This document shows positions 2-24,133 of a stretch of DNA of 25,641 bases, piece by piece (positions within the stretch are counted from its first letter, which is position 1; each line of letters begins with the position of its first letter). This stretch comes from a virus. The notes under the pieces are model-generated. The model did no database searches and was not told the origin of the DNA. It saw nothing but the letters and a program-made list of their open reading frames with translations. The stretch spans positions 1 to 25,641 of IMG/VR virus record IMGVR_UViG_3300046004_001429, one strand, 5' to 3'. Position numbers and translations under genes: made by a program.

Positions 2-328
2 AAAGTAATTGGCTTGTATGAGCAAGCATTAAATTTTGTTGATAATGAAGAATGGAGCGTTGAAATTATCAAAAAAGAAGATGATAGCAATGACGCTCTC
101 TTGAAAGAACGTGAAGCTCTTTTGGCTCGTCTTGCAGAAATAGATAGTCAGCTAAATTTAACAACGGAAGTTAAAGTTGTAGCAAAAAAAGTAGTGAAAA
201 ATGGCGCAGGCGTGATGAAAAAAGCGTGGGTGATTGTTAAGGAAATGATTAAAAATTTCGGCGGTAAATCCCATGATTATTTATCTAAAGCATTAAAAAT
301 TTCATGGTCAGAAGCAAGTTTTGCTTAA
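2..328 (+). CDS. Partial hypothetical protein, first gene of the putative anti-CRISPR operon (5' end outside window)
   Basis: The reading frame is open to the left edge of the window, so the real start is upstream; a TTG at 14 is the first possible internal start but has no convincing ribosome-binding site. The visible part is about 108 residues. It has a charged, probably helical stretch rich in Glu/Leu in its first half. The C-terminal end is Lys/Trp/Ala-rich, with a pattern like KKAWVIVKEM followed by YLSKALKISW. Short Lys/Trp-containing tails of this style recur at the ends of unrelated small phage proteins, but I cannot assign a family. It stops 16 bases before the start of the next gene and reads in the same direction as the AcrIF11-like gene, so it is probably part of the same transcript. 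Function unknown. Confidence 0.6.
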   Translation, partial: KVIGLYEQALNFVDNEEWSVEIIKKEDDSNDALLKEREALLARLAEIDSQLNLTTEVKVVAKKVVKNGAGVMKKAWVIVKEMIKNFGGKSHDYLSKALKISWSEASFA

Positions 329-344: not shown

Positions 345-914
345 ATGGTAAATTTAACTTTAGATATAAAAGCGGTAATTAAATCTGAAATCGATTTCAG
401 AGAGGTGTCGAGTACAAAGCTGTATGTAGATAGCTTTCATGATGACGTGATGCAAAAAAAATCTTGTGGCTCGGTTGATTGGCATAAGGGAAAGACCGTA
501 GAAATTTTTGAAAATTTTGAAAGCGGCATGGATGACTTAGATAAAGAATACTTTCTGACTTTTGAATTTGACGGCAAAAAGTACAGCGTAGGTTTTTATA
601 GCGAAGAAGAACAAAAATTAGCATTTCAAAAAATTTTAAAATTTTCCGACAAATTTTGCGGAATTTCAGTTGAGCTACATAAAGGATGCGGAGCTTTGGC
701 AGCAATCAAGCACAAAGTAAAAGAAATTTATGATGACGAAGATTATGAGACGGAAGGATTCGTAGCTTTCGTCGATAAAGATGGGCTGATATGGAACGAA
801 GAAAGATTTTTCTTCGGTAAAGAAATTATTGAAAAAATTCGAGACATTTTTTTACTCAGTTATTTACATCCCGATTCAAAAACTGGTCGTTTTTATTACA
901 AACCCATCAATTAA
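345..914 (+). CDS. Hypothetical 189-aa protein in the anti-CRISPR operon
   Basis: I chose the ATG at 345 because a GGAG lies eight bases upstream; an in-frame start at 321 would overlap the preceding gene and lacks such a site. The protein is soluble-looking and acidic, with no signal peptide or membrane segment. It alternates short beta-like runs (for example EYFLTFEFDGKKYSVGFY) with helices, and has a late stretch rich in Phe and Glu (ERFFFGKEIIEKI). No family is recognised. It sits 12 bases upstream of the AcrIF11-like gene in the same direction. By position it is a candidate inhibitor of a host defence system, but that is inference from context only. Confidence 0.75.
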   Translation: MVNLTLDIKAVIKSEIDFREVSSTKLYVDSFHDDVMQKKSCGSVDWHKGKTVEIFENFESGMDDLDKEYFLTFEFDGKKYSVGFYSEEEQKLAFQKILKFSDKFCGISVELHKGCGALAAIKHKVKEIYDDEDYETEGFVAFVDKDGLIWNEERFFFGKEIIEKIRDIFLLSYLHPDSKTGRFYYKPIN

Positions 915-926: not shown

Positions 927-1373
927 ATGTTTCATAATGGCGATTTAGAAAATATGAAAGAATGGAACGCAGATAATGGTGTTTTTGGTGATTTTGCGTT
1001 TTTTTCTGGTGAAGAAAATTGTTCTTTTGTTAATAGCGGTTCATTCACTTATGAACTTGATGATGATTTAATCGAAAATGATATTTCGGCTTGGCGTTTA
1101 GAATATGAACATAATGTTTTAGAAAATGCCGATGCAGTTAAATATCTTGAATTTATTGCGATTCGTTTTGATTGTGACACTGAACAAGCATTACGTTATT
1201 TAACTGAAGAAGATGATTATTTAGGTGAAGCAGAATTAAGTTGGGAATTACAAAAACATCAAGCGCATTTGTGCAAAATTTTTGGTTATGATTGTGTCAG
1301 AGTACATGATGAGAATGGTGTTGTATCAATGATTGATATGACAAAATACCTAAATAATCTTGTAAGAATATAG
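927..1373 (+). CDS. acrIF11: AcrIF11-like anti-CRISPR protein (ADP-ribosyltransferase type)
   Basis: The 148-residue product matches my memory of the AcrIF11 family over its whole length. It has an N-terminal FH followed by FGDFAFF (residues 20-26), AELSWELQ (102-109), and a C-terminal DENGVVSMIDM (128-138) leading to LVRI. Known of the family: AcrIF11 is an ADP-ribosyltransferase-fold enzyme that modifies the Cas8f (Csy1) subunit of the type I-F Cascade and stops PAM recognition. The gene starts 12 bases after the preceding gene and ends one base before a GTG-started helix-turn-helix gene, which is the usual acr-aca arrangement. The fit is by eye, so activity against a specific I-F system is inferred. 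A diverged ADP-ribosyltransferase-fold protein with another target is the main alternative. Confidence 0.83.
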   Translation: MFHNGDLENMKEWNADNGVFGDFAFFSGEENCSFVNSGSFTYELDDDLIENDISAWRLEYEHNVLENADAVKYLEFIAIRFDCDTEQALRYLTEEDDYLGEAELSWELQKHQAHLCKIFGYDCVRVHDENGVVSMIDMTKYLNNLVRI

Positions 1374-1374
1374 A

Positions 1375-1983
1375 GTGAACGATAAACAAGAATTAAAAGA
1401 CGCTTATAAAAAAGCAGTTTCAATCAATAAAATAAGCGCAAGCAACCTTTTATATTTGCACAAAATAACGCAAAACACGCTTGATAAATGGCTTTATGTT
1501 GCTGATAGATACCCCGATTTTCAAGCGTGCTACGAGTTGTATAAATTTATTAGAGGCTTACACGGCAAGTTACCCGTTGAGTTGCAGCGAATTATTGCGC
1601 GTTCAAATACTCGCGTAAATGATGCCATTTCACGATTAGAAAAAAATCCAATCAGTGATTTTGAAATTATTGGTGGCAGAAAACAAGCTGGTGCAAAACC
1701 TGCAAAACGTTTTGTTTTAAACAAAATAGAACTGTCTATTTCAGAAATAGCAGATAATTTTGGAATCACTGCAAATAGTGTCTTTTGTAGAACTAAGCAT
1801 TTGGATTACGGCGCAGATGTTTCAGAAATCGATTTTTCCTTTAAAAAAATAGGGCGACAAGAAAAAAAGTATTTATTTGAAAATGAAGAATTAACAATAA
1901 AAGAAATTTCTGAAAAGCTAAATATAGAGCGAAACAAGACTTATCAGATAATCAAAAAATTAAACCTAAAAGAAATTAAATAA
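1375..1983 (+). CDS. Helix-turn-helix protein with tandem HTH units, candidate anti-CRISPR-associated regulator
   Basis: The 202-residue protein starts at a GTG one base after the AcrIF11-like stop codon, so translation is probably coupled. Three parts are visible. Residues about 25-60 contain KITQNTLDKW, a motif shared in outline with the 57-aa protein encoded just downstream. Residues about 118-145 (LSISEIADNFGITANSVFCR) and about 174-198 (LTIKEISEKLNIERNKTYQI) are two similar helix-turn-helix units, apparently a duplication. Anti-CRISPR operons normally end in a small HTH repressor (Aca) that shuts off the acr promoter, and this gene's position fits that role. At 202 residues it is much longer than most described Aca proteins. 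The operator cannot be checked because the operon promoter lies upstream of the window. Confidence 0.75.
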   Translation: MNDKQELKDAYKKAVSINKISASNLLYLHKITQNTLDKWLYVADRYPDFQACYELYKFIRGLHGKLPVELQRIIARSNTRVNDAISRLEKNPISDFEIIGGRKQAGAKPAKRFVLNKIELSISEIADNFGITANSVFCRTKHLDYGADVSEIDFSFKKIGRQEKKYLFENEELTIKEISEKLNIERNKTYQIIKKLNLKEIK

Positions 1984-1994
1984 GAGTTCAAAAA

Positions 1995-2168
1995 ATGACT
2001 AAAAAGACATTGCTCGAAACAGTTCGCGAATACGACCTTTTTGAAGTAAAAGAAGTTATCTCTGCAACGAAAGTACAGAGAGCAACGTTGCAAAACTGGG
2101 TTGAATCAAGACCCGAATTGCTAAGACTTATTTTGATTGGAATGCAAGCAGATAAAAAAGCAAAATAA
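1995..2168 (+). CDS. Small 57-aa HTH-like protein, candidate Aca repressor
   Basis: The ORF runs ATG 1995 to TAA 2168, 11 bases after the 202-aa HTH gene. Its second half contains TKVQRATLQNWVESRPELL, which has the T-x3-TL-x2-W layout seen near the N terminus of the preceding protein; a short helix followed by a recognition-like helix is plausible. The size is close to that of known small Aca proteins (roughly 50-80 residues). It is the last gene of the plus-strand operon. Its 3' end is overlapped antisense by the putative minus-strand peptide ORF at 2121-2228. A DNA-binding role is inferred from the weak HTH-like pattern and the neighbourhood. Other than that, the function is unknown. Confidence 0.6.
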   Translation: MTKKTLLETVREYDLFEVKEVISATKVQRATLQNWVESRPELLRLILIGMQADKKAK

Positions 2169-2228
2169 CAACGCACTAAAAAAAGCGTTGCTAATAAACT
2201 CAATGAATTTTATAAATCTAAAACTCAT
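2121..2228 (-). CDS. Putative 35-aa hydrophobic membrane peptide
   Basis: A GGAGG at 2236-2240 stands seven bases before an ATG at 2226-2228, on a transcript that would start at the extended -10 at 2273-2278. The peptide begins MSFRFIKFIEF and has one very hydrophobic segment (FFSALLFCFFICL) followed by a polar tail, which is the look of a small single-pass membrane peptide. The start codon lies inside an 11-bp hairpin. The first 14 bases of the transcript can pair with codons 12-16, so translation should be tightly controlled. The ORF runs antisense through the end of the 57-aa HTH gene. It could be a type I toxin-like peptide, a small inner-membrane protein, or a coincidence inside a non-coding RNA. 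Confidence 0.4.
   Translation of the reverse strand: MSFRFIKFIEFISNAFFSALLFCFFICLHSNQNKS
2169..2190 (-). promoter_or_regulatory. Alternative antiterminator-like hairpin
   Basis: CAACGC at 2190-2185 can pair with GCGTTG at 2174-2169 (minus-strand order), placing the T-tract in the loop. Because 2185-2190 also belongs to the 14-bp terminator stem, the two structures exclude each other, which is the usual geometry of an attenuator. Confidence 0.35.
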
Positions 2229-2267
2229 TGAAACACCTCCACACAAGTGAAGAATTAGCAACGCTTT
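2178..2267 (-). ncRNA. Putative ~90-nt structured RNA closed by a 14-bp stem and U-tract
   Basis: The sequence at 2254-2267 and that at 2182-2195 form a perfect 14-bp inverted repeat. On the minus strand the first arm begins about six bases after a TATAAT and the second arm runs directly into seven T residues (2184-2178), so a transcript would start and stop at the two arms of its own closing stem. Inside lies a second hairpin (2201-2230, 11 bp with one G-U pair, 8-base loop) and an unpaired 23-base strand carrying a GGAGG. A third copy of the core (2169-2174) can pair with 2185-2190 instead and would break the terminator stem. The structure is read directly from sequence; transcription and function are inferred. 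Confidence 0.5.
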
Positions 2268-2484: not shown

Positions 2485-4101
2485 TTAAATTCCTAAATGT
2501 TTTTTCAAAATTGTATTTTCTTCGGCTAATTGCTGAACCGCTTTTACTAACGGCGCAATCATTTCTTCGTAGCCAATTGAATACACATCGTCACCGCCGC
2601 TTATTGCGTGGTGTTGTAACCCGCCAAAGTCCGCGTTTAACGCTTCAACTTCTTGGGCGATAAAACCATGATGGTAACGTGACCGTTTGTGTGCGCCATC
2701 ATGGGCGATATTTTTCAACTTGTTGCTTTCCAACCATTCTGCGTGAATCACAGCGTAGTCAGCATCAAGTTTGTCCACGATTTCTTTGTAAGCTAAATCC
2801 TCTGCCTCAACACGCAATGCGTAGTCTTCGTCAGATTCATCCTCTTCACGTTCAACGTGGACTTTTTCGGGGTGTACTGGTGTATTTGGAGCAGGTGTAC
2901 GATAACTTTCACGGTTATCCCATTTGAAATCAACGGGACGCAAAGAAAGTACGAAATCTAAACCGAGTACGGTATCACGAACATCAGCTTTATCTCGAAT
3001 ATCTGAACGGTTTTGAATTGCGCCATAAGCATAAGTTGTTGTAGCTGTATCACCTAATTGAACTTGGTTTGAACCTGTTACTGCCGTGCTTGCGCCTACA
3101 CCTGTGACGTTATAGAAGGTAGTATTAGCTACTAAAGCCTGATACCCAATAGCCGTATTACCACCACCTGTAGTATTAGCCTTTAAAGCAGAGTCACCAA
3201 CAGAGGTGTTATTACTGCCACTACTATTAACTAACAAAGCCTGATACCCAACAGCTGTATTATTCGTACCAGAATTATTAGCAGGAGTAGCACTACCTTT
3301 TAATGCTTCATATCCTATACCTACTTGGTTTGATACTGCTTGTTGGTTGTAGCCTGAGTTGTATCCGTAGAAGGTGTTGTTTGAACCTGTGGTGTTAAAT
3401 CGAAGCGAACTAACACCTGTAGCTGTATTATTAGCCCCCCCATAGTCAGTGGCTAATGCTAATCCACCAATCGCTGTATTATTAGCTCCTGTGACATGAG
3501 CAGTCAACGCTTGGTAACCATTAGCGGTATTGTAGCTGGCGTTAGTGTTAGATAAAAGCGTTTGATACCCAACAGCAGTATTACCTGTACCAGTATTACT
3601 AGCAGGAGTAACACTACCTCTTAATGCTTCATACCCAATGCCTACTTGATTTGAGGCTGCTTGTTGATTATAGCCTGCGTTATAACCAACAAACGAATTT
3701 CCTGAACCAGTGGTGTTATTGTTTATAGAGCCAGCCCCTAACGCTGTGTTATGTGATCCTGCGGTTGAGCTAAGTAACGCTGCAGAACCAACCGCACAAT
3801 TAAACGACCCTGTTGTGTTTGAAGCACCTGCTACATACCCTATCGCAACATTGGAACTCCCTGTTGTTGTCGAAGCTGAAGCTCGGTATCCAATAGCTAT
3901 ATTTATATAACCAGTCGTATTTGCTGTTAAAACACCACCCTTGCCGATAGCAATGTTTGATTTAGACAAATCGGCCCATGTAACAGGAGATGCGTTATTC
4001 CCAGCACCTCTCCCGAACGAAACCCCGTTTATTATTAAATCCCTTGCCCAGTAAAAATCATTCTTATTTTCACGTTTTAAGTTAGGTAAATTCGAGCGCA
4101 T
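2485..4101 (-). CDS. Tail fibre/spike with YadA-like head repeats and C-terminal intramolecular chaperone (peptidase S74-type)
   Basis: The 538-residue protein has three parts. Residues about 35-350 are made of Asn/Gly/Thr-rich repeats of roughly 14 residues of the form G-x2-NTA-x-GY-x-AL, as in the left-handed head domain of trimeric autotransporter adhesins. From Ser366 (NRSDIRDK) the sequence becomes an endosialidase-type intramolecular chaperone, with LRPVDFKW and, after a roughly 75-residue acidic insert, HHGFIAQEVEAL and a final coiled coil (LVKAVQQLAEENTILKKHL). In this family the chaperone aids trimerisation and then cuts itself off before a Ser, here most likely Ser366. The protein should form a trimeric receptor-binding fibre at the tail tip. 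Two neighbouring blocks of the repeat region look like a 107-residue duplication. Confidence 0.85.
   Translation of the reverse strand: MRSNLPNLKRENKNDFYWARDLIINGVSFGRGAGNNASPVTWADLSKSNIAIGKGGVLTANTTGYINIAIGYRASASTTTGSSNVAIGYVAGASNTTGSFNCAVGSAALLSSTAGSHNTALGAGSINNNTTGSGNSFVGYNAGYNQQAASNQVGIGYEALRGSVTPASNTGTGNTAVGYQTLLSNTNASYNTANGYQALTAHVTGANNTAIGGLALATDYGGANNTATGVSSLRFNTTGSNNTFYGYNSGYNQQAVSNQVGIGYEALKGSATPANNSGTNNTAVGYQALLVNSSGSNNTSVGDSALKANTTGGGNTAIGYQALVANTTFYNVTGVGASTAVTGSNQVQLGDTATTTYAYGAIQNRSDIRDKADVRDTVLGLDFVLSLRPVDFKWDNRESYRTPAPNTPVHPEKVHVEREEDESDEDYALRVEAEDLAYKEIVDKLDADYAVIHAEWLESNKLKNIAHDGAHKRSRYHHGFIAQEVEALNADFGGLQHHAISGGDDVYSIGYEEMIAPLVKAVQQLAEENTILKKHLGI
3239..3684 (-). repeat. 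107-codon imperfect duplication inside the fibre gene
   Basis: The stretches around 3239-3361 and 3558-3684 are clearly related at DNA level and are offset by 321 bases, i.e. 107 codons. Both encode GYN-x-GYNQQA-x-SNQVGIGYEAL followed by NTAVGYQ. A shorter third relative of the start of the unit is seen near 3138. Unequal crossing over between the copies would change fibre length in frame. Confidence 0.7.
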
Positions 4102-9504: not shown

Positions 9505-10985
9505 CAGCCAATTACTCCCAAAACAATTTCTTTTCTTTTAGCATCAACTTCATAAGAAATAACGGTCATCAGCCTGCCCATGCCATAACCCAAACTACTT
9601 GTCGAAACGGTGATTCCCTGCCCAATTTCCAATGCAGGTATTTCATGCACAATCGCGGTGATTTGCACTACGTCACAGCGGGAGGCGGATAAATTCAAAA
9701 GGCGCGTTGCCACAGCAATAGCATCCGCCTCATTAACCAGTACGCTTTCGATTTCAATTGCACTTGCAAGGGGATGACGAGCTAAAACGGCATCATCTTT
9801 GACGTAAGCACTTCGATAATCACGCGCAAGTAGCGATTTTCTCGAGGCTGTCACAGTGCTTGCGAGTTCGGTTTCTTGCTGTACGGTTTCTATTTTTCCA
9901 TATTTAATGAGACAGGACGTGTAAGGAATGCCATTTTTTCCCAGCCCAATGCCTGAACGCGAAATACCGTTTTCGGTGATTTCGCTATCTGTAACTTCAA
10001 AACTAGAAACCGTAGCGAGCCGGGTTAAATGCGCGTGCATCACATCAGCAATAAAAAACCAATGCGCCCCGCAACTTGAAATGATTTTATTGAGCAATTC
10101 AGCGGTCGAAGTTTCACTTGTGACATATAAGCCAACTTGCCCGACCGCATTTAAAGTTGCTTTTGATGTCGAATCAAATGAAATGGCGGGCGTTAATTCG
10201 CTCAAAATAGCGTCAAAAACATCACCCGCTAAAATCGCGCTATCGCTTGCATCGCCTGTCACGGTTCCAACTGGTGCTGCTCCCAATCTAATGTATCCGC
10301 AGCATCTAATGAACTGCCCAGCTGCAACAGTATCGGTTTGGAATGTAGCAAAGTTATCCCATGTGTAAGTCACTCCCAGAGTCAACGCCAAGCCCTTGTC
10401 ATAAACAGCATTAACAATGCAAGTCTGGCGATCTGAAAATTGATAAATCAAACGATAAGATGTGTTGACTAGCACGGGCGACGCATTCGCTACTTTGCCA
10501 AACACACGCGGCTTTACACTGCCTTTGATGTCAGTCGCAACACCCTCAATGCCCGCAGGCAAAACGTTAGAGCCTGCATATTTCGTATTAGGATGAGTGC
10601 GTTGCAACACTTCCGACATCGAGCGAATCGGAATAAAGATAGACCCAGATTCTTCGTGCGGTGCATCCGCTCTCACGCTCAAGTAATCGATAATTGTGCC
10701 GTCATCGCTGACCAGCGATAAAACGCAAGAGCTGTTATCAAGCGCGTAATCACACAAATAATTCAATTCACCGTCAATGTTAATGAGCTCAATTTCCCCA
10801 ACTGACGGATCAGCAAAAATATCAAGCACACCGCCATCATTGGGTGAAATCTTGATTAGTGCGGGCTGCAACATGCGTTGCTCGTAGAAAATGCCATCCA
10901 GAACAATCCCTTCATCACCAAAATGAAGTGTCACGGGATTGTTACTCGCATCAAGCGCGTTAATTTTAACTATCCAAACACTCAT
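9504..10985 (-). CDS. Tail-tip/baseplate hub-like protein (493 aa)
   Basis: The first half (VWIVKINALD, then LHFGDEGIVLDGIFYEQRM, then VGEIELINIDGELNYLCDYA) resembles N-terminal parts of siphovirus distal tail proteins, in which 'element, no, line' geometry is read from a beta-sandwich. The middle holds a domain with STAELLNKIISSCGAHWFF, like hub proteins that recruit the tip, and the end is beta-rich. Known siphoviruses encode such a protein right after the tape measure, where it closes the tube and anchors fibres. The ATG overlaps the tape measure stop. The detailed domain assignment is by eye. Confidence 0.7.
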   Translation of the reverse strand: MSVWIVKINALDASNNPVTLHFGDEGIVLDGIFYEQRMLQPALIKISPNDGGVLDIFADPSVGEIELINIDGELNYLCDYALDNSSCVLSLVSDDGTIIDYLSVRADAPHEESGSIFIPIRSMSEVLQRTHPNTKYAGSNVLPAGIEGVATDIKGSVKPRVFGKVANASPVLVNTSYRLIYQFSDRQTCIVNAVYDKGLALTLGVTYTWDNFATFQTDTVAAGQFIRCCGYIRLGAAPVGTVTGDASDSAILAGDVFDAILSELTPAISFDSTSKATLNAVGQVGLYVTSETSTAELLNKIISSCGAHWFFIADVMHAHLTRLATVSSFEVTDSEITENGISRSGIGLGKNGIPYTSCLIKYGKIETVQQETELASTVTASRKSLLARDYRSAYVKDDAVLARHPLASAIEIESVLVNEADAIAVATRLLNLSASRCDVVQITAIVHEIPALEIGQGITVSTSSLGYGMGRLMTVISYEVDAKRKEIVLGVIG

Positions 10986-13900
10986 TGACGTGCCTGTATT
11001 CTTGTTTTCGACTGAATTTTGTCGAGTGAATTTGCTTGCTTACGATTTTCTTGAAGCGCAGCCTGCATTACAGAAACTAACGCGGCTAAGTTACGATTTT
11101 GCTCATCCGATTGCTTTAGCTGCTCTTGTAATTTCCCGTTAATTTCTTCGAGTTTTTTAATCGTTTCAGCGTTATTGCTTGAACCCGAATCGTTTGAAGC
11201 AGGGCGATGTAACATCACAGGAATTGAATAGCCATTAGGCAATGTCGATAACGAGCCGGGAAAATGATTTGCGGTATTCGTACTGTAGTTGGCACCATCT
11301 GTAAGCGGTTGATTCATGAATGCTTGCGTAGCTGTAATATACTCCTGCATAGCTACAATGTTCGTGTAATCATCCCCGTAACCCGCATTGACCGCTTGCG
11401 ATTCTAAAAACGAGTTTCCTTGCGCTGTATTTGCTTGATTTTGCATTGCTTGAGCTTGCAAAATCAGCGCAGTATTAGCTTTATCAATCGCAATCTGCGC
11501 TTCATTTCCCATCTCAAAAAAAGCTGTTTTTAAATTAGCAACATTAGCGGTGGCTGTTGCGGTTTGAATATCGACAATCCTATCAACACTGATACCATTT
11601 AAGCCCATTAAGCTTATGTTAACATCGTGGATATTTAGCTTTGCGGCTTCGTTTTTAACTACTAAATCAATTGGATTTACAGCTAAATCAGCAAGCAATA
11701 AATCGTAAGATGTTTGGATTTTTCCAGCAGTATCCGTTGAGAATCTATCAGCAATACTTTTGAAAGCATCATCAATTTTCGAGAGTTTTTCCCCGGTATC
11801 AAAATTTGCTGAATTGATAACAAAATCCAAATAGGCTTGAATGCCATTTTTTTCAGTAAATGATTTCAGCAGCGCATCAATAAATTCGCTATTTGCACCT
11901 GCTGATTTTGCATTTACGACTGATAAAACGAGTTTGCTATCCGCATCTAATTTTAGCGCATTTATGGCATTTGGGTTTGCATCGTAAGCGGCTTTATCTT
12001 TAGCAACTTGCGAAACCAAGCCATCAAAAACAACACCTAATCCCACTGGCAAATCATAGATACCACTTTTAATTTGCTCCAAAGCACCAAGCTGTAATTG
12101 CTCAATTGGGATAGATTTTTCAAGCCCTGACACGTCACTAACAACTTGCTCAATCATTTTCATACCCGCTTCACTTGAGCCGTAATAGTTTTTGATTGAT
12201 TCAATAAACGTGTCGGCATATCCCGTAATTCCACCCAAGGCAGCGCGTTTTTCTTCGGCACTTGAACCTATACCTTTTGCGATACTGAGCTGTGCAGCAA
12301 AGGATTTTCCTGCATAGTCAATTTGTGTAGTTGGCGTGCCGATTTTGGTTGCTTGAGCAGCATCAACCCAAGTCTTAATTGAACGGCTAAAGTCCATAAG
12401 GTAATTTACTGCTTCGACTTTTACTTTTGAAAGTGCATCGTTATAGGCTTTTTGCGCGTCTTTTGCATCGCCAAGCAATGAAACGGTTCGCGCTAAATTC
12501 GCATCAAGCGGATGATTAAGATAAGCATTGATGACAGTATCGATTGTTTCGCCAACGCCACTTAATGCGGTGTCAAGCGAATTAGTCGCCGCATCTGCTT
12601 TCCATTTTAAAAATCCATTTTCGCCCAACGCCAACTTCATGTTTTCGTCGGTTATTTGCATTGCTTTGTCGATTCCACCCAATGCGTCTACAAATTTGTT
12701 TGCGCTTGAAATGAAATCACTGGCAGTCATTGAATCAGCTATTTTCTTATTTGTAGCGAGGTAAATGTTTTGTATGAATAACATATTATTCAGAATTTCA
12801 CCACCCGCTTTTGTTAAATAAGTTTCGAAATCTTTATTGTATTTTTTGAGTGCGTCATCATAAAAAACTTGTGCCTCTGCAACCCCAGACTTAGATTGTT
12901 GCGCTTTGACTAACGCTAAATTCGCATCATCTACAGACTTGTAAGCGTTATCTTTTTCAGCGTTTGTTTTGGCAACGCCCGAAATTACCCCCCCGAATAC
13001 ATCAAGCTTTCCTACACCCGCCAATCCTAAATCCTTTGAAAGCATCATGATATTAAGACTCGATTGAAATGCGCTTGCGGATTGCCCACCCGTTAATTTT
13101 TCATTCTTAACGTAATTATTCCAATCCAAGGTGATAGTTGACATAGCGTCTTGCAAGGATTTTTGTAATTCATCACCGACCAAATTACTGGCATTGCTAA
13201 AACTTTTTGACACCGCATCTGCGAGTGTCATTGTCATCGTGGCAGCTTCAAACATTGACATTCCCAATAAATCCATTGAATCCATTAACTCGATTGAAAA
13301 TGAATAATTGTCTTTGCCTGCTATTCCTAGCGCGTACATTTTAGCTGTTACAATTTCTAAAGCTGCCGAACTAGAACCCGCTGCATCCGAAACATCTTTT
13401 AAAATTTCTTCATTCGTTTTCCCCGATCTAGCCAACGCCTTTAAGCGCCTGCCAACATAATCAATAAATTCGACTGGCTTTTGCGCTAATTCAAAAAGCA
13501 GAGTATTTCCTGTTGTTGTTTTTGAACTTGTTAAGCTACTTATTACTGCCGCCGTGTATTCTTTTGGATAAGCATCAATAAAAATCTGTAACCATTGCGA
13601 TGCCTTTTTTGCAGAAGCCGTATCAACATAACTTAATCGAGCAACTACTTGACTAAACAAGGTATCCGCCATTAAGGCGGAATCAAAAGAATTAGCATCA
13701 ATTCGATTGTTAATAGGGTTTTTTACTAGCGAATCTCTAAAAAGACTATTTGTTGTATCCGTTAGCAATCCGTTTGAAATATCAATTGAATTCAGTGTAT
13801 TAGCTAATCCCTGGACAATATCAGCCAATCCTTTGGTATAGTCTTTTTCTTCTTGAGTGAGTGCGTAATTCAGTCCTTGAGTTCTACCGTAACCAACTGA

Positions 13901-16900
13901 ACCAAGTGCCGTATCCCATTCACCGCGCCGTCCCTTCCAATCCCCAGAAACATTGTAATTATCACTCACCGTTGTGATATTTTTATAATCTGGTTTAGTA
14001 ACTTGAGATTGCAAAATATCTAAATCAAATTTCTTTTGTTTTCCAAAAAATGACCCAATGAACTTTCCAAAAACATCGCCCAGCACATAACCAATCATTG
14101 TGCCTAATCCAGGAAAAATCATTGTTCCGATAGCTGCACCCACCAATGATGAACCTACACGAATTATATTTTGCGTGGTAAAGCCATCTTTTATGATACT
14201 TCCTACCTGACTAATGACCGTTGCAATCGCGGCAACAGCCGCCGAAACGGGATTCATGAATGCAATAGCATAGGTTCCCGCGATACCTGAAACAGCATCA
14301 GCAACCGCAATTACTTTACTTGTTACGCCTTTTAAACTACTCCATTCACTGACCAGTGAATACACTTCCGTACCAACTGAAACAATAACAGCGACTGTAC
14401 CCAGTAATTTCTCCATTGATTTCGCAGCCGCTCCACCTACTTTGTCAAACACGGCATTTAGTTTTGATTCAGACAGTGACTTAACCGCATCTGTTGTTAA
14501 TCCAACGGCATCAGCTCCTTTTGCAATTAATTCCTTGCCAGCACCAAGAACATCCGCAATTGTCGCACTAATTCCCGTACTTAACTCCCCCAATCCTTTC
14601 ATGAAATCAGGAAAATAAGTGTTAAGTGATGAGCTAATGAATCCACCAATGGATTCTGCATTTTTATGAATTATTCCAAAACCGCTTGAAAGTACATCAC
14701 GCAAATTTTCATTATATTGATCGGCAAACTTACTGGCTTGCAAAAACACCATATTGCTCACAGCGGCATCCGTTTTAAGCATTAAACTTGCGTCAGCAGG
14801 TACGCCGTTGGGGTATTTTGAAGTTTGTGAAATGGTTGCAGCAATGCCACTGCCGTGTTTTTGCAAGCCCATGTAAGTACCCAGCGCAACTGCACCGACT
14901 AAAGCCGTCACTGTTCCGCCCAATCCACTAAATAACCCGCCCGTTGCACCGCTAAAACCGCTAAACATCTTTTGCACTAATCCTTGCGCGATAAAATCAA
15001 GAATGGTTGAGGTGATGCGGTTCATCATGCTTTTGAACATATCGCCAAGTGCTTGTGTTGCCGATTTGCCATTTAACGCAATGTCTTTGAACATCGTACC
15101 GAATGATTCGCCGATTTTTTTAGCAGATAAACCTAGGTCATTAACGAGCGTCATACTTTTGTTTATGTCATATTCGCGCATTAAATTAGCAATTCTTTCA
15201 TCGCTAAATTTATTTGCCCGTTGACTTGCCTCATATTGCTCACGGTCATTCATTGTTAATTCACGGCGGATTTTTTGCAGAGCCTCAACTTCGTTTTCGT
15301 AAGCCTTTGTGATTTGCTCGCTATTATCTTTTGTAAAATTACCAGTATCTTTCAAATAAGCATCAACCATTTCTTTTTGCTTATTCAAATACTCGTTTTC
15401 AGACATACCGCTACGTCCAGCGCGTAACTCCACGTCTATTTTTTCAAATTTACCGCGTGCAGTTTGCTCAAAAACACGTTGACGCTCGCGCTCTGCCTCG
15501 GTTAGTTTTTCAATTCCGACAGTAGATTTTTCAAACTCTGCGGCGATTTTTTGCTCATTTAACAAAAAGGTTTCGGGTTCTAATTTGCCACGCACTGCTG
15601 CCAAGTCACGCATATCGGCTTGATATTTTTTTAACGGATCGTTGTCGCTAAATTTATCAATTGCAGCCTGTTCTTTTTTGGCGGCACGCATCGCGTCGGT
15701 TTCTTCTTTGTGTGCGACTTTTTTCGCGGCAGATTCATTTTTGCGAATTTCACTGGCAAAAACCGTGTTGTGAATCATCAGCTTTTCTTGTGCTGATAAT
15801 TCGCGCCCTAAAGCAGCCGTTTGCGCTTTGAGCGTTTCGCCTTCTTCAATCACTAATTTTTTATGACTATCAGCAAAAAGTTTATCGAAAGCGAGGCGTT
15901 TATCGTTAGATTCCTTAACTTTTTTATCGGAAATATCGGCGGCGGTTGGCTGCAAATCTTTTAGAAATTGGTCTTGATTTGCCGCCACAGCGTTAGCGGC
16001 TTGTTTATTGGCTAAGTCATTAAGCGAGGCGCGTTGCATAATTGAGCTGCCATTTGCAGCAACTTGTTTTACGCTATTGCGTTTTTCGTAATCTGATTGA
16101 CCTAAAAAGTAATCGTAAGAACCCGTAACCAAACCGATTGCGTTATCTTTAATGCTTTTTAAAAACGAAATGCGCTCAACGAATTTGTTTACCGCTGAAA
16201 TTGCTCGTGAAATGCCGTTTAAAATATCATTCCAAATGACTTTTATTGTGCTTCCAAGTGTGGCACTTGTGCCATTGACGCTAATGGTTGAGTCTCTAAA
16301 TTCATATAATGCCGTTGCCGCAATGCCGATTGCTGTAGCGACTGCCACAAACGGATTTAACTGCATAGTTCTAGTTAAAATCGCCGTGTGAATTTCCGCC
16401 GCAATAACAGCCGCTTTGTAAGCAACAAAACCACCCACAGCAATACCTAGCGCATTTGCCAATTCTGTAACATGACCTGCGGCAAAACGCATCGATTCTG
16501 CAATACCTTGCGCTACGCCGCTTGTTTGTCCACCTTTTCCGATAAATTCAGTTAGCGCGTTGCCAATTAACGTAAAAGATTGACCAATGGTTAAAGGCAT
16601 TTGTGAAAACTCTTTCTCGATGCGCGGTACCATTTTTGCGAGTGCATCGGTTGTAACTTGTGTGGTTAATGCGCCCGCTTCAGCCATACGCTTAAATTCA
16701 GCCGTTGTTGCGCCAAGCCCGTCACGAATTGCCATTACAAGGCGCGGCGTTTGCTCTACCATTGAGCGCAATTCATCACCACCTAAACGATTGGACGCTA
16801 ACGCCTGTCCAAATTGAATGAGTGCATTTTTTGCTTCAACCGCACCTGAACCGCCAATAATAATGGCTTTATTGGTCGTTTCGACAAGGCGCAATAATTC

Positions 16901-17464
16901 CTGCTGAGATTTACCCGCATCGCGTGTGGCTTGAGCCATTTTGAAATATAAATTTGTAGTGCTTTCTAAATCTGTGCGCGTGCTTTGTGCAATTTGTGAA
17001 AGTCCTACTTGCGCGGTTCTAAGTTCATTCATTGAACCCGAAACCAGCTTTAAACGACCTTCTAAACTTGCCCATGCGTCCATTTGCTTGATAATTTCTC
17101 GACCACTTAATACTGACATTAAACCCAGTGCAGCCGATTTAAGTGAATTCATCGAACCCGTTGCCGCATTCGTGACGCGCGTATTTTCAGCAAGGCTTTG
17201 ATTTAATCGGTTTGTACCGTTGATGGCTTCAATGGTTGAACGGCTTAAACCTGACACGCCACCCGTTAAGGAAGCCATTGCTGTTGTTGAGTTAGCCGAC
17301 CACCGACCTAAGTTTTGAACACCGCCTGACAAACTTGCCACGCCTGAATTTGAATTATTGCTTGCGTTGCCTAAGTTATTAACGGCTTGTGTGGTTTGTG
17401 AAATAACAGAAATCGCCCCGCTGGCATCAGCCGCGATTCTAATGGTTAGAGCTTGCGTTGACAT
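10982..17464 (-). CDS. Tail tape measure protein (2160 aa)
   Basis: The largest gene in the window. Residues about 115-260 match the classic tape measure N-terminal domain (KQMDAWASLEGRLKL, then STTNLYFKMAQATRD, then NRLGGDELRSMVEQTPRL). Long Ala/Gln/Lys-rich helical segments follow. Hydrophobic Gly-rich segments near residues 865 and 1100-1140 (VGAAIGTMIFPGLG) may insert in the host membrane during DNA entry. The C terminus is a coiled coil (LEEINGKLQEQLKQ). Using the usual 0.15 nm per residue, the tail would be about 320 nm. Start ATG has AGGAG upstream. It is much longer than tape measures I recall from other Mu-like siphophages (roughly 1100-1300 residues). Confidence 0.93.
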   Translation of the reverse strand: MSTQALTIRIAADASGAISVISQTTQAVNNLGNASNNSNSGVASLSGGVQNLGRWSANSTTAMASLTGGVSGLSRSTIEAINGTNRLNQSLAENTRVTNAATGSMNSLKSAALGLMSVLSGREIIKQMDAWASLEGRLKLVSGSMNELRTAQVGLSQIAQSTRTDLESTTNLYFKMAQATRDAGKSQQELLRLVETTNKAIIIGGSGAVEAKNALIQFGQALASNRLGGDELRSMVEQTPRLVMAIRDGLGATTAEFKRMAEAGALTTQVTTDALAKMVPRIEKEFSQMPLTIGQSFTLIGNALTEFIGKGGQTSGVAQGIAESMRFAAGHVTELANALGIAVGGFVAYKAAVIAAEIHTAILTRTMQLNPFVAVATAIGIAATALYEFRDSTISVNGTSATLGSTIKVIWNDILNGISRAISAVNKFVERISFLKSIKDNAIGLVTGSYDYFLGQSDYEKRNSVKQVAANGSSIMQRASLNDLANKQAANAVAANQDQFLKDLQPTAADISDKKVKESNDKRLAFDKLFADSHKKLVIEEGETLKAQTAALGRELSAQEKLMIHNTVFASEIRKNESAAKKVAHKEETDAMRAAKKEQAAIDKFSDNDPLKKYQADMRDLAAVRGKLEPETFLLNEQKIAAEFEKSTVGIEKLTEAERERQRVFEQTARGKFEKIDVELRAGRSGMSENEYLNKQKEMVDAYLKDTGNFTKDNSEQITKAYENEVEALQKIRRELTMNDREQYEASQRANKFSDERIANLMREYDINKSMTLVNDLGLSAKKIGESFGTMFKDIALNGKSATQALGDMFKSMMNRITSTILDFIAQGLVQKMFSGFSGATGGLFSGLGGTVTALVGAVALGTYMGLQKHGSGIAATISQTSKYPNGVPADASLMLKTDAAVSNMVFLQASKFADQYNENLRDVLSSGFGIIHKNAESIGGFISSSLNTYFPDFMKGLGELSTGISATIADVLGAGKELIAKGADAVGLTTDAVKSLSESKLNAVFDKVGGAAAKSMEKLLGTVAVIVSVGTEVYSLVSEWSSLKGVTSKVIAVADAVSGIAGTYAIAFMNPVSAAVAAIATVISQVGSIIKDGFTTQNIIRVGSSLVGAAIGTMIFPGLGTMIGYVLGDVFGKFIGSFFGKQKKFDLDILQSQVTKPDYKNITTVSDNYNVSGDWKGRRGEWDTALGSVGYGRTQGLNYALTQEEKDYTKGLADIVQGLANTLNSIDISNGLLTDTTNSLFRDSLVKNPINNRIDANSFDSALMADTLFSQVVARLSYVDTASAKKASQWLQIFIDAYPKEYTAAVISSLTSSKTTTGNTLLFELAQKPVEFIDYVGRRLKALARSGKTNEEILKDVSDAAGSSSAALEIVTAKMYALGIAGKDNYSFSIELMDSMDLLGMSMFEAATMTMTLADAVSKSFSNASNLVGDELQKSLQDAMSTITLDWNNYVKNEKLTGGQSASAFQSSLNIMMLSKDLGLAGVGKLDVFGGVISGVAKTNAEKDNAYKSVDDANLALVKAQQSKSGVAEAQVFYDDALKKYNKDFETYLTKAGGEILNNMLFIQNIYLATNKKIADSMTASDFISSANKFVDALGGIDKAMQITDENMKLALGENGFLKWKADAATNSLDTALSGVGETIDTVINAYLNHPLDANLARTVSLLGDAKDAQKAYNDALSKVKVEAVNYLMDFSRSIKTWVDAAQATKIGTPTTQIDYAGKSFAAQLSIAKGIGSSAEEKRAALGGITGYADTFIESIKNYYGSSEAGMKMIEQVVSDVSGLEKSIPIEQLQLGALEQIKSGIYDLPVGLGVVFDGLVSQVAKDKAAYDANPNAINALKLDADSKLVLSVVNAKSAGANSEFIDALLKSFTEKNGIQAYLDFVINSANFDTGEKLSKIDDAFKSIADRFSTDTAGKIQTSYDLLLADLAVNPIDLVVKNEAAKLNIHDVNISLMGLNGISVDRIVDIQTATATANVANLKTAFFEMGNEAQIAIDKANTALILQAQAMQNQANTAQGNSFLESQAVNAGYGDDYTNIVAMQEYITATQAFMNQPLTDGANYSTNTANHFPGSLSTLPNGYSIPVMLHRPASNDSGSSNNAETIKKLEEINGKLQEQLKQSDEQNRNLAALVSVMQAALQENRKQANSLDKIQSKTRIQARQ

Positions 17465-20544: not shown

Positions 20545-21465
20545 TTACTCCACCACATTGGTAAGCAAGAAACCAAATTCTTTTGCAGTAACAACTTCGC
20601 GTACCGATTCACCTGCACGCACTTTCACGCCGCCATACATACCGATATTTGGGTCAACGATAGTCCCTGCGATTCGCGTACCGAATTGCGCGGTATAGCC
20701 CCACATTCCGTTATCCGCTTGACTGACTGAACCACTGTAAATTCCTGCACAGAATTTCCCCCAAATTCGGGTTTTCACGGGTGTTTTGCCTTTCGGAGCG
20801 GTGTTAATCCAGCCATCGCCGACAATGATTTCGTCAATTTCAAGTAAATTTGCAAGCTCTTGGCGGGTAATTCGACGCGCCCCAGCGGTTGCACCTGCAA
20901 CAGCCGTTAATTTTGGATGCTGACTTAACACTGTCCATACCGCACGCCCCATGACTAACTTGTTTGGACGCATGAACGGCTGGTCTAAATAACTCAGCAA
21001 ATCCGCTAACGGATTAGAGTTCGCGTAATCTGACCACATTGATGTTCCCGATAAAGTAGCGGTATAAGCAAAATTAGCCGCATTATTAGCAATGGCAGCT
21101 GCACGGATTTCACGCCGTAATTCGACAAAGCCCATAACACGCTGTGTCGCACGCATCAACGCTGATTCAGCAGGGGCGTTTTTTGAATCTTGATTCGGCA
21201 CGGGTTCATCTAGCCCCTGGTTGATCGTCGCCAAATACACAGGGTCTTGAACGCTATTTGATAGCTGGTTTGGCATACCGACACGACCGACGTTGGTTTC
21301 GGGCGGTGTAATCCATTCCGCCATGCGGTCTGACAAATCAATGAATTCTTGTTTATCCACGCCGACACGCGGCAATACCAAATCTGCAATCAAACCCGAT
21401 TGACGAAATTTAATCGCAACGGCGGATAACGTAGGAATAATAACCAATGGTGAATTTGCACTCAT
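20545..21465 (-). CDS. Major capsid protein (HK97-fold type)
   Basis: 306 residues. The sequence has ADLVLPRVGVDKQEF near 27-41, an early LGLDEPVPNQ-like loop, VELRREIRAAAIANN around 115, LSGTSMWSDYANSNP, RPNKLVMGRAVWTVL, a DEIIVGDGWINT segment, and a long C-terminal beta region. This matches a class of major capsid proteins found in Mu-like siphoprophages. It is encoded just after the protease/scaffold and small cement-like gene, the standard head order. The shell is expected to assemble on the scaffold part of the upstream protein. Confidence 0.85.
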   Translation of the reverse strand: MSANSPLVIIPTLSAVAIKFRQSGLIADLVLPRVGVDKQEFIDLSDRMAEWITPPETNVGRVGMPNQLSNSVQDPVYLATINQGLDEPVPNQDSKNAPAESALMRATQRVMGFVELRREIRAAAIANNAANFAYTATLSGTSMWSDYANSNPLADLLSYLDQPFMRPNKLVMGRAVWTVLSQHPKLTAVAGATAGARRITRQELANLLEIDEIIVGDGWINTAPKGKTPVKTRIWGKFCAGIYSGSVSQADNGMWGYTAQFGTRIAGTIVDPNIGMYGGVKVRAGESVREVVTAKEFGFLLTNVVE

Positions 21466-21468
21466 GGC

Positions 21469-21864
21469 TTAACCTTGCATAATAGAACGTTGTAATAACA
21501 CAGGAATTTGCTCATCAACCGATGCGGCTGACTTGAGTGCGATTCCGATAATTTGCACATTAACGCCCGCCGCTGGGGCTGCTGTAATGACGCGCCCTGT
21601 TGCATCAATCGTTAAGCGTGAACCGCGTACAATTACTGCGCCTGCACGCCCTTCTGCAATGCCATCAATGACAACATCGACCAAATTACCTTTAGTAATA
21701 TCATCTGCAACCACTTCGATTTCATTAGTAAAACCAATCACTAAATCAGCAGTCGCTGTCGCTAACGTAATCGTGTTGTCATCTGCACCGAATTTTACTG
21801 CTGAAAACGGCACAATTGCCGCTGTCGGCGTGAAACTTTTAATTAAACCTGTGTTGTTATACAT
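21469..21864 (-). CDS. Small capsid cement/decoration-like protein
   Basis: The 131-residue protein starts MYNNTGLIKSFTPTAA and has alternating Val/Thr/Ala strands (NEIEVVADDITKGNLVDVV), ending in EQIPVLLQRSIMQG. This is the look of small capsid decoration proteins of the DUF2190-like kind encoded between protease/scaffold and capsid genes. I chose the ATG at 21864, which overlaps the upstream stop region; a start five codons earlier (21879) is possible. The name is tentative. Confidence 0.65.
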   Translation of the reverse strand: MYNNTGLIKSFTPTAAIVPFSAVKFGADDNTITLATATADLVIGFTNEIEVVADDITKGNLVDVVIDGIAEGRAGAVIVRGSRLTIDATGRVITAAPAAGVNVQIIGIALKSAASVDEQIPVLLQRSIMQG

Positions 21865-22966
21865 TTTGTACCCACTCATTCATGACATGGTTAATCGCGG
21901 CAATATCATCAATTTGATAACCCAATGCCGCTTGTTGTGTTTGATATGCTGTAGCCGCCGAAGCAACCTCGGTCGCACTTTTTTCACCTTTTTTGCCATT
22001 ACCCTCTGGTGCATTTCCGCCTGTTTGCGTGCCACTTAATGCGGCAATAGGTATGGCTTTATCCAAAAACGCGCTTAACGCTTCATGTGACAAACCTTTC
22101 GCCCAATCACTTAACGCTGGCGTGATGCGACCGTCAGATAATCCGACTTTTACTAAATCATCAACCGCGTTTTGATTGATTTTTGTATTTAAAGCGGCGA
22201 GTTCTTTTTGTAATTCATGAACTGCTGCAACGGGAACGTGCGTTGATAAATCAACGGTTTCTGTTTTTGACTCAGGCATCGTTTTGGCTTCCAAAATGGT
22301 GATAATTGAAGATGCCGCCGCCGTTTCGGTTGGCGTTGCATCCATAATTGTTCGTAATTTGTCCATTTGCGCTTTAACTTCTTCTACCGTTGCTAAAGTT
22401 GGCAAATTGAATAGATAGCGCAGTCTTTCGAGTAATTCATCTAAATCCACAGATAGAGCCTCTGTTGGTTGTTGAAAATAATCAGCCGCTAACGCGCATA
22501 AATCCTTCATCGAATCGAGCGCAGGATTATTCGTGAGAGCCGCCATGTGAATTTTGGTAATCACCCCCGTTTTAGGTTCAAACGATAAAACAGGAGAGAT
22601 GTAGCGGTATTCTTTGTTTTGAATAGCTAAAGCCGCACTATCAGTCCATTCAACTTGTGTTGCGAACAACCCCAAGCCTTCGCGATATTCGAGCTGTGAA
22701 AACCATCCAGCGGCATACGCGGGTTGACCATTTTGTTTTGCGTAAAGTGTTTGGTGTTCATAATCGATAACAAAAGCATCCGCTTGTGAATTGGCAAGTT
22801 GAACCACCGTCTGTGCGTTTTCATTGGTTAAAATCCATCCTGACAACCCCACAGGTCGCCCGTCTTTCGCTTTGAACAAGCCAGCGGGCGTGAGCTGAAT
22901 TTCAGTCGGAACAGCTCCACCCAAATCCGTTGAACACGCTGCTAATGTGATAATCTCTTTTTTCAT
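21857..22966 (-). CDS. Mu I-type protease/scaffold protein
   Basis: The 369-residue protein begins MKKEIITLAACSTDLG, then IQLTPAGLFKAKDGRPVGLSG-type sequence, AFVIDYEHQTLYAKQNG with the conserved D-x-EHQT motif, and IHMAALTNNPAL: these are hallmarks of Mu gpI proteases. The C-terminal part (LQKELAALNTKINQ, VGLSDGRITPALSDWAKGL) resembles the scaffold segment that in Mu is also made separately (Z). It should cut scaffold and capsid during maturation. An in-frame ATG at 23008 is rejected because residues before 22966 do not match the family. It is the first gene after the terminator that follows Mor. Confidence 0.92.
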   Translation of the reverse strand: MKKEIITLAACSTDLGGAVPTEIQLTPAGLFKAKDGRPVGLSGWILTNENAQTVVQLANSQADAFVIDYEHQTLYAKQNGQPAYAAGWFSQLEYREGLGLFATQVEWTDSAALAIQNKEYRYISPVLSFEPKTGVITKIHMAALTNNPALDSMKDLCALAADYFQQPTEALSVDLDELLERLRYLFNLPTLATVEEVKAQMDKLRTIMDATPTETAAASSIITILEAKTMPESKTETVDLSTHVPVAAVHELQKELAALNTKINQNAVDDLVKVGLSDGRITPALSDWAKGLSHEALSAFLDKAIPIAALSGTQTGGNAPEGNGKKGEKSATEVASAATAYQTQQAALGYQIDDIAAINHVMNEWVQNV

Positions 22967-23032
22967 GCTGATATTTTGCCAATTACACGTTTTTCTTGAT
23001 ATTCGCATGCGCTAGTGATTTTTAACGGGCAT

Positions 23033-23082: not shown

Positions 23083-23415
23083 TTACTTCTCCGCACACCA
23101 ATCAAGTTGATTTTTTTGCTGATATTCTTCAATGATTCGATAGACTTGCGATAAACATAAATCGAACCGCTTGGCGAGTTCACGATGATTTTTGCCATTG
23201 AAGGCTTGCCAAATTTCATCGTGTTTTTTTTTATTCACCCAAGCTGCCGCTTTGGGAATGTAGACGGGTTCACCGCCGTGATTTTCCCTGACTAACTCCA
23301 CTACCTCACGACTAATCTCGTCTATTTCATCATGATGCAACGCTACCCGCTCTTTGAGCTTGTTTGCAATAAATTCACGCATATCAATCAAAAATTGTGG
23401 GTAGTTGGCAGCCAT
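23083..23415 (-). CDS. mor: Mor/C-family middle/late transcription activator
   Basis: The 110-residue protein has a helical N-terminal half (YPQFLIDMREFIANKLKERV) used for dimer formation in Mu Mor. This is followed by GGEPVYIPKAAAW, and a C-terminal helix-turn-helix (HRELAKRFDLCLSQVYRII). In Mu, Mor activates the middle promoter and the related C protein the late promoters. I chose ATG 23415 (AAGGA upstream); a longer frame would overlap the DUF3164 gene by 59 bases. It ends just before a strong terminator, so it is the last gene of its operon. Confidence 0.9.
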   Translation of the reverse strand: MAANYPQFLIDMREFIANKLKERVALHHDEIDEISREVVELVRENHGGEPVYIPKAAAWVNKKKHDEIWQAFNGKNHRELAKRFDLCLSQVYRIIEEYQQKNQLDWCAEK

Positions 23416-23485
23416 CTTTATAAAATCCTTGGAAACATAAACCAGTAAAGAAATAGGGAGCAGGTGATAGCAAAAATCAAATCGT

Positions 23486-24133
23486 TCATAAGCCTGAAAA
23501 ATCCAGCGTGAGCGATTGATATTTACCGCTTTCATCACGTTCAAAAAAGCGCATATATTCGGTACTCCCCACGACTTTCACTGCGTCACTAATGGCTTGC
23601 ATGGCGTTTTTCCAGTCTTCATCGTCAATTTCAACACGGCGCAAACTCAAGATTCTACGCTGATCTAAATTTCCTTCTTTATCAACATTAAACGCATCGT
23701 GAATCAAGGCAATCAGGTTTGAATTACCGCCTTCACTCCATTTTTCAATACAAATATCAATTAAGGCTTTCGCGGCTTGGAGACGCTCATCAAAGGCGAT
23801 ACGGTCTTGCTGGGCGACTTGCACTTTGTATTTGCCGTCAAAGCTGTGCAGTGACAAATTGCCTTTTCTGCCGCCCATTTTCACGCCATATTTTTCAGCA
23901 CTCAATTCAATAAAGGCTTGCACGTCTTTAAAGGCACTACTTTTGAATTCTTGCACTAAGCTCGAGACGCATTTGGCATTGTTAATCAGCTGCGACACTA
24001 AATCATCACGCATCATATCAACGGGTTTAATTAAGTGTTCAGGCACTAAATAGCCTTTTTCGTTGGTGCGATAAATCGGTTTATTTACCGCTTCAACGGT
24101 GGTTTCCTGCGTTACTTCTTGCGACTCACTCAT
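23486..24133 (-). CDS. DUF3164 family protein
   Basis: The 215-residue protein carries the family pattern: DMMRDDLVSQLINNAK, FKDVQAFIELSAEKYGVK, MGGRKGNLSLHSFDGKYKVQ, FDERLQAAKALIDICIEKW, ALIHDAFNVDKEG and AMQAISDAVKVVGSTEYMRF. DUF3164 proteins are widespread in Mu-like phages, in the early/middle region near the gemA and mor genes. Their biochemical role is not established. The start overlaps the upstream stop (ATGA). Confidence 0.92.
   Translation of the reverse strand: MSESQEVTQETTVEAVNKPIYRTNEKGYLVPEHLIKPVDMMRDDLVSQLINNAKCVSSLVQEFKSSAFKDVQAFIELSAEKYGVKMGGRKGNLSLHSFDGKYKVQVAQQDRIAFDERLQAAKALIDICIEKWSEGGNSNLIALIHDAFNVDKEGNLDQRRILSLRRVEIDDEDWKNAMQAISDAVKVVGSTEYMRFFERDESGKYQSLTLDFSGL

What the first reader, a model, noticed from the sequence alone, without database searches (positions are those of the whole stretch)
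927..2168. AcrIF11-like anti-CRISPR with two helix-turn-helix genes at the end of a Mu-like phage tail operon
The 148-aa protein carries FGDFAFF, AELSWELQ and DENGVVSMIDM in the order I recall for AcrIF11. Two probable DNA-binding proteins follow it in the same direction, the usual acr-aca layout. In the D3112-like Pseudomonas phages known to me the acr locus sits between the head genes and the protease; here it is at the other end of the genome, convergent to the tail fibre. This predicts a host lineage with a type I-F CRISPR system.
Basis: partly seen in the sequence, partly recalled or inferred. Interest (0 to 1): 0.85.

Follow-up and report, generated by a model that had tools for sequence, protein, structure and literature searches.

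The report
AcrIF11-type anti-CRISPR in a Mu-like phage
A Mu-like phage, probably of methane-eating bacteria, carries a divergent but apparently intact copy of a known CRISPR-disabling enzyme (AcrIF11), followed by a large multi-part DNA-binding protein that turns out to be an unnamed, recurring companion of anti-CRISPR genes in other phages and plasmids.

Summary
ORF 927-1373 (148 aa) scores above the curated cut-off of NCBIfam NF052490 AcrIF11 (59.6 vs 50 bits). Its AlphaFold model retrieves the two solved AcrIF11 structures, 8DWQ and 6KYF, as the top two PDB matches. It keeps the catalytic Asp/Glu pair (D128/E129). Most likely it is a NAD-dependent ADP-ribosyltransferase that inactivates type I-F Cas8f; activity is inferred, not tested.

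The next gene (1375-1983, 202 aa) has an N-terminal HTH-like domain plus two hairpin-HTH modules and belongs to an unnamed family. In nine other loci found by its own sequence it lies beside a probable aca5 in eight and beside acrIF11 in three: a candidate long Aca or Acr-Aca hybrid. The 57-aa ORF (1995-2168) resembles no Aca5 or HTH family.

The window is a fragment; a sister contig supplies MuA, MuB and repressor genes. Capsid homologues place the host in Methylococcales (97% and 62% identity there; at most 45% in a Gammaproteobacteria sample). There, 69 of 301 genomes carry Csy1, and the AcrIF11 target Asn250 is conserved in 38 of 40 examined.

Position next to tail genes has a precedent in Moraxella phage Mcat24.

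The parts
927..1373 (+). acrIF11-family gene, 148 aa; predicted ADP-ribosyltransferase; catalytic pair D128/E129, conserved H3, core motif 104-109 (LSWELQ)
   Evidence: NCBIfam NF052490 59.6 bits, cut-off 50; phmmer to 8DWQ E 9e-7; Foldseek top two hits 8DWQ and 6KYF; 16-sequence alignment
1375..1983 (+). 202-aa multi-HTH protein (N-terminal HTH-like domain plus two beta-hairpin-HTH modules); candidate long Aca or Acr-Aca
   Evidence: Pfam HTH_24; AlphaFold secondary structure; family found in 9 other loci, 8 with a probable aca5, 3 with acrIF11; module HMM
1995..2168 (+). 57-aa ORF of unknown function, last gene of the operon, in the position where aca genes usually sit
   Evidence: ORF; no family match; not Aca5 by HMM
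345..914 (+). 189-aa ORF of unknown function directly upstream of acr in the same cluster
   Evidence: phrog_36652 only at E 0.011; no PADLOC match
14..328 (+). Small ORF with PF07410 (Phage_Gp111) motif; frame open to the window edge, so probably truncated
   Evidence: Pfam 3.5e-10; same motif beside the 202-aa family in L046 and, weakly, L051
2182..2267 (.). 14-bp perfect inverted repeat enclosing two smaller hairpins, in the convergent intergenic region; possible terminator or structured RNA
   Evidence: z -6.5; no Rfam match
2485..4101 (-). Tail spike/fibre with endosialidase chaperone (Peptidase_S74) C-terminus, end of the convergent tail operon
10982..17464 (-). Tail tape measure protein (2160 aa)
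20545..21465 (-). Major capsid protein, D3112-like; used for host assignment
21857..23008 (-). Mu I-like head maturation protease
23083..23544 (-). Mor/C-like late transcription activator

Best explanation
The locus is an anti-defence island in a Mu-like (D3112-type) phage of a Methylococcales host. Gene 927-1373 is a divergent AcrIF11. By homology it uses NAD to attach ADP-ribose to the PAM-reading asparagine (N250 in P. [quoted passage not shown] The co-directional 202-aa multi-HTH protein most likely binds DNA and limits expression of the cluster (an Aca role), possibly together with the 57-aa protein. Shown here: gene order, family membership, fold match, conserved catalytic residues, recurrent acr/aca neighbourhood of the 202-aa family, likely host order, and conservation of the target residue there. 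Inferred: enzyme activity, target, and the repressor role.
For: NF052490 hit above the equivalog cut-off, reproduced by six-frame search of the record. Sequence match to 8DWQ. AlphaFold model (pTM 0.73) with 8DWQ (E 9e-5) and 6KYF (E 4e-4) as the only significant PDB matches, both probability 1.00. H3, W106, Q109, G120, D128, E129 and G131 invariant in 16 homologues; D128/E129 align with the mutationally essential D146/E147 of AcrIF11Pae2 (PMC12421852). Relatives of the 202-aa protein beside acrIF11 and a probable aca5. Cluster G+C 32.5% against 38.9-45.8% for every other window of that size, as expected of an acquired island. Capsid 97% identical in a Methylococcales genome contig. Csy1 in 69 of 301 genomes of that order; N250 conserved in 38 of 40.
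Against: The score (59.6 bits) is much lower than for the other members examined (107-134 bits), and identity to any member is at most about 40%. The tyrosine at Pae2 Y46 (mutated together with H20) is N31 here, and the N-terminus is poorly modelled (pLDDT about 45 for residues 1-20). No copy was found in 261 Methylococcales genomes (no positive control in that set). The MAG with the closest capsid shows no csy1 or csy3. No type I-F spacer among 1,224 matches this phage. The promoter of the cluster seems to lie outside the window, so no Aca operator could be tested.
Confidence: 0.82

Rival explanations
1. The protein is an active AcrIF11-fold ADP-ribosyltransferase, but its target is not Cas8f: another CRISPR type, another defence protein, or host metabolism.
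For: Divergent sequence, with the target-recognition helical region least conserved (PMC12421852 says the helical region is most variable). AcrIF11-like domains also occur in 273-328-aa phage proteins that do not look like Acrs (L067, L069, L072, L075). Closest-capsid MAG lacks csy genes.
Against: Over the equivalog cut-off. The synteny partner is a family otherwise tied to acrIF11 and aca5 loci. Type I-F is common in the host order, with the target Asn conserved.
Confidence: 0.12
2. It is a toxin-antitoxin pair: an ART-type (RES/MbcT-like) toxin with a downstream HTH antitoxin.
For: ART gene followed by an HTH gene; MbcT (6FKG) is the next structural match (E 0.05).
Against: The MbcT match is weak and far below AcrIF11. 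Neighbourhoods in relatives are acr/aca loci in phages and plasmids. AcrIF11Pae2 modifies only Csy1 detectably in cells.
Confidence: 0.03
3. The 202-aa protein is not a regulator but a second anti-CRISPR, or a dual Acr-Aca like AcrIF24, and the operon is regulated by something else (the 57-aa protein or an upstream gene). This concerns the second gene and is compatible with the best explanation of the first.
For: In four loci its relatives lie upstream of a probable aca5, where acr genes normally sit (L049, L050, L051 and the P. versatile plasmid), and in eight of nine loci a probable Aca5 repressor is already present. AcrIF24 is an HTH-containing Acr (PMC7648647; PMC9001735).
Against: Several DNA-binding modules and no other recognisable domain. 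No sequence match to any solved protein, AcrIF24 included.
Confidence: 0.3
4. The acr is decayed and no longer active.
For: Only one copy of this allele is known; the Y46 equivalent is replaced.
Against: Open frame; all nine positions invariant across 16 divergent homologues are kept; Pae1-type sequences also lack the Tyr.
Confidence: 0.05

Closest known systems
AcrIF11Pae2 (PDB 8DWQ) and AcrIF11Pae1 (PDB 6KYF)
   Same: Same profile family, same fold as top two structural matches, catalytic Asp/Glu and N-terminal His conserved, encoded on a mobile element next to an HTH gene
   Different: Low identity (26% and 17% over the structural alignment), Y46 replaced by N31, different host lineage, no Aca5 homologue detected
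AcrIF11 of Vibrio chagasii plasmid p1 (WP_261900902.1)
   Same: Closest sequence found in the annotated collections (34% by tblastn, about 40% in alignment); 134-bit AcrIF11 family hit
   Different: Plasmid-borne, different neighbours
Erwinia phage phiEt88 gp67-gp66
   Same: acrIF11 followed by a homologue of the 202-aa multi-HTH protein (56% identity in the N-terminal 57 aa)
   Different: Three C-terminal modules instead of two, and an unannotated probable aca5 (L037:1367-1525) between them; phage not closely related
Aca5 (60 aa, Pectobacterium WP_039494319.1, PMC9410906)
   Same: HTH gene in acrIF11 operons
   Different: The 202-aa protein is not homologous to the Aca5-like set by HMM and is over three times longer; its family usually accompanies Aca5 rather than replacing it
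D3112-like Mu-like phages (JBD67, JD18)
   Same: Capsid 41% identical, I-like protease, Mor, GemA-like gene, and MuA/MuB-like ORFs on the sister contig
   Different: Terminase, portal, F and G genes are absent between Mor and protease; acr cluster is convergent to the tail genes
Moraxella phage Mcat24
   Same: acrIF11 gene converging on the phage's plate/tail genes
   Different: Different phage, and no multi-HTH gene seen beside it

Membership tests
AcrIF11 | Profile score above the curated equivalog cut-off | tested here: met
   59.6 bits, cut-off 50; other members score 107-134
AcrIF11 | ART fold as in 6KYF and 8DWQ | tested here: met
   Foldseek top two, probability 1.00, TM about 0.5; N-terminal 20 residues poorly modelled
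AcrIF11 | Catalytic acidic pair (D115/E116 or D146/E147) | tested here: met
   D128/E129, invariant in 16 sequences
AcrIF11 | H20/Y46 nicotinamide-pocket pair of Pae2 | tested here: inconclusive
   H3 aligned and invariant; Y46 position is N31, but Pae1-type members also lack Tyr
AcrIF11 | ADP-ribosylates Cas8f N250 and inhibits type I-F interference | not testable with these tools
   Only the conservation of the target Asn in 38 of 40 Methylococcales Csy1 was checked
Aca (202-aa protein) | Contains an HTH DNA-binding domain | tested here: met
   Pfam HTH_24 8e-8; HTH-like secondary structure
Aca (202-aa protein) | Encoded in an acr operon, recurrently | tested here: met
   8 of 9 other loci carry a probable aca5, 3 of 9 carry acrIF11
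Aca (202-aa protein) | Homology to one of the known Aca families | tested here: not met
   No match to the Aca5-like HMM, none to any PDB sequence (solved Acas such as Aca1 and Aca7 are in the PDB); structural matches to Aca1/Aca7 not significant. Reference sequences of the other Aca families were not at hand, so this test is incomplete
Aca (202-aa protein) | Represses its own promoter through an inverted repeat | not testable with these tools
   Promoter seems to lie outside the window; inverted repeats in relatives' promoters are more simply Aca5 sites
Aca (57-aa protein) | HTH domain | tested here: inconclusive
   No match in Pfam, NCBIfam or PHROGs
Mu-like transposable phage | MuA/MuB transposition genes, Mor, I-like protease | tested here: met
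   Mor and protease in window by profile; 696-aa transposase-like and MuB-like ORFs on sister contig L027, identical to the window over 10,524 bp (these two ORFs identified by reading, not by profile)

The most novel reading that the evidence does not exclude
The 202-aa protein represents an undescribed family of long, modular acr-operon proteins: an N-terminal HTH-like domain plus zero to three hairpin-HTH modules. They act as second-tier repressors, or as Acr-Aca hybrids, alongside or in place of Aca5, and the number of modules sets the DNA site that is read. Searches limited to small Acas (all 12 known are under 150 aa) would miss them.
Probability: 0.5. Interest if true: 0.6.

Novelty: new member of a known kind. 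Interest (0 to 1): 0.45.

Why it matters
It extends enzymatic anti-CRISPRs of the AcrIF11 family to phages of what are probably methane-oxidising bacteria, where type I-F systems are common (69 of 301 genomes). It gives a divergent natural variant for working out which residues matter for catalysis and target choice. The multi-HTH companion is a ready marker gene for finding new acr loci: its neighbours in L046, L048, L050 and L051 are untested acr candidates.

Tried and rejected
1) I first took the N-terminal part of the 202-aa protein for a fused Aca5; HMM comparison with the short Aca5-like set rejects this. 2) I first thought four long-HTH loci lacked Aca5, so that inverted repeats in their promoters would be operators of the long protein. 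A six-frame search showed aca5-like genes in phiEt88, L048 and L051 too, missed by my ORF picker, so that argument was dropped. 3) The 57-aa ORF as a diverged Aca5: scores at noise level. 4) Search for the rest of the phage to the left of the window by an exact 30-mer: nothing. 5) CRISPR spacers: 1,224 spacers from 29 Methylococcales type I-F loci gave no hit on this phage. One spacer matched the related phage L033 at 29 of 32 positions, but without a canonical PAM. 6) Acr protein alone against phages and viral contigs: nothing; an alignment was needed. 7) AcrIF11 and 202-aa-family searches in Gammaproteobacteria and Methylococcales samples were empty apart from one sub-threshold AcrIF11 match, and the sets contained no known positive, so they are weak evidence. 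8) Rfam on the intergenic stem: no match.

Full report
OBSERVATION. The window is an IMG/VR virus record of 25,641 bp, not shown to be a complete genome. The three ORFs are present as described and run on the + strand towards the tail fibre gene on the - strand. Two more + strand ORFs precede them: 345-914, and 14-328, whose frame is open to the window's edge. The island therefore probably extends leftwards beyond the record. Its G+C content is 32.5%, below every other window of the same size in the record (38.9-45.8%).

THE ACR. The 148-aa protein is the only one of the five tested that NCBIfam recognises above a cut-off: NF052490 AcrIF11, 59.6 bits against 50, and the same match appears in a six-frame search of the record. 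phmmer against PDB sequences gives 8DWQ (AcrIF11Pae2) at E 9e-7. An alignment of 16 divergent homologues from IMG/VR keeps H3, F25, L58, W106, Q109, G120, D128, E129 and G131 invariant. D128/E129 line up with D146/E147 of AcrIF11Pae2, whose double mutant loses both ADP-ribosylation and phage protection (PMC12421852). An AlphaFold model from that alignment (mean pLDDT 77, pTM 0.73) has as its only significant PDB matches 8DWQ and 6KYF, the two solved AcrIF11 structures. Weak points: the score is the lowest of the members examined (others 107-134 bits), the N-terminal 20 residues are modelled poorly, and the position of Pae2 Y46 is N31. Pae1-type members also lack that tyrosine, so this does not exclude activity.

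THE 202-aa PROTEIN. Its C-terminus matches HTH profiles. The model shows an all-helical N-terminal domain and two repeats of beta hairpin plus two helices; a module HMM recovers both repeats in the window protein. The N-terminal domain is 56% identical to that of Erwinia phage phiEt88 gp66, whose neighbour gp67 is an AcrIF11 (134.6 bits). A scan seeded by this family's sequence, not by its neighbours, gave eight IMG/VR loci, one of them phiEt88; a Pectobacterium versatile plasmid makes nine. acrIF11 lies beside it in three (L047, L049, phiEt88). A short HTH protein of about 52-63 aa that I take for Aca5 lies beside it in eight. The Aca5 label is an inference from length, position after acrIF11 (PMC7648647) and the HTH_28 match (PMC9410906), because the reference sequence was not at hand. 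The number of C-terminal modules varies: none in L053, one in five loci, two in the window, L046 and L047, three in phiEt88. PF07410-motif ORFs accompany it in the window and in L046 (above cut-off) and L051 (below cut-off). All 12 known Acas are under 150 aa (PMC9765179). I found no paper describing this family in the library searched. Because Aca5 already accompanies most members, the family may be a second regulator or an Acr-Aca hybrid; the data do not decide.

THE 57-aa PROTEIN. It sits where an aca would be expected but matches no profile, and its score against an Aca5-like HMM is at the level of random ORFs.

THE PHAGE. The structural genes are D3112-like: capsid 41% identical to JBD67 and JD18, I-like protease, Mor and a GemA-like gene (the GemA name for phrog_286 is mine). 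Contig L027 is identical to window 15118-25641 over 10,524 bp and continues into MuB-like, MuA-like, Ner-like and repressor-like ORFs (named by reading), so this is a transposable phage. Both records lack terminase, portal, F and G between Mor and the protease. JBD67 and relative L031 have the usual portal-F-G-protease order. These genes must lie left of the window or be missing, so the statement that the acr cluster is at the genome end is unproven. Moraxella phage Mcat24 also has an acrIF11 gene converging on plate and tail genes, so the position is not unique.

THE HOST. A scan of about 85,000 species genomes with a tail protein found one relative, in a Methylomonas MAG (54%). In that MAG's order (Methylococcales) the capsid is 97% identical in one genome (6.6-kb contig) and 62% in another (64-kb contig). 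In a sample of 339 genomes of the class the best is 45%. Csy1/Cas8f is present in 69 of 301 genomes of the order. The residue corresponding to P. aeruginosa Csy1 N250, the AcrIF11 target (PMC12421852), is Asn in 38 of 40 Csy1 proteins examined. The genome with the 97% capsid shows neither csy1 nor csy3, which may reflect a draft genome or strain variation. None of 1,224 type I-F spacers hits this phage.

CONCLUSION. The finding is a true, divergent AcrIF11 locus, in a host lineage where I found no report of one, accompanied by a recurring, apparently unnamed multi-HTH gene family. Biochemical activity, target and regulatory role are inferred.

Noticed in passing
window 23008-23083; L027:1-8500: No terminase, portal, F or G genes between Mor and protease, in two contigs of the same phage; the packaging module is either relocated beyond the acr cluster or absent.
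   Followed up: partly
window 2182-2267: 14-bp perfect inverted repeat enclosing two hairpins between the convergent operons; RNA folding z-score -6.5, no Rfam family. CAACGC at 2169 could pair alternatively with the left arm.
   Followed up: partly
L067, L069, L072, L075: AcrIF11-like ART domains form the C-terminal part of 273-328-aa phage proteins, suggesting a wider phage ART family to which AcrIF11 belongs.
   Followed up: no
L037:1367-1525 (Erwinia phage phiEt88): Unannotated probable aca5 gene between gp67 (acrIF11) and gp66.
   Followed up: partly
L050:2059-2969, L038:2355-2843, L048:2553-2807, L051:2511-2792, L046:1956-2938: Small unknown ORFs directly upstream of the multi-HTH/aca5 genes: untested acr candidates; no NCBIfam Acr match.
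   Followed up: no
L117 spacer 20 against L033:1873-1904: A Methylococcales type I-F array carries a spacer matching a related phage at 29 of 32 positions, without a canonical PAM.
   Followed up: partly
L027:198-869: Nuclease-like reading frames (DGDTLTV...IDAPE and an excalibur-like C-terminus) left of the repressor, possibly host DNA at the insertion site or a phage accessory gene.
   Followed up: no
L044, plasmid collection: AcrIF11 homologues are very common on E. coli, Klebsiella and Shigella conjugative plasmids (511 plasmid records with a match).
   Followed up: no
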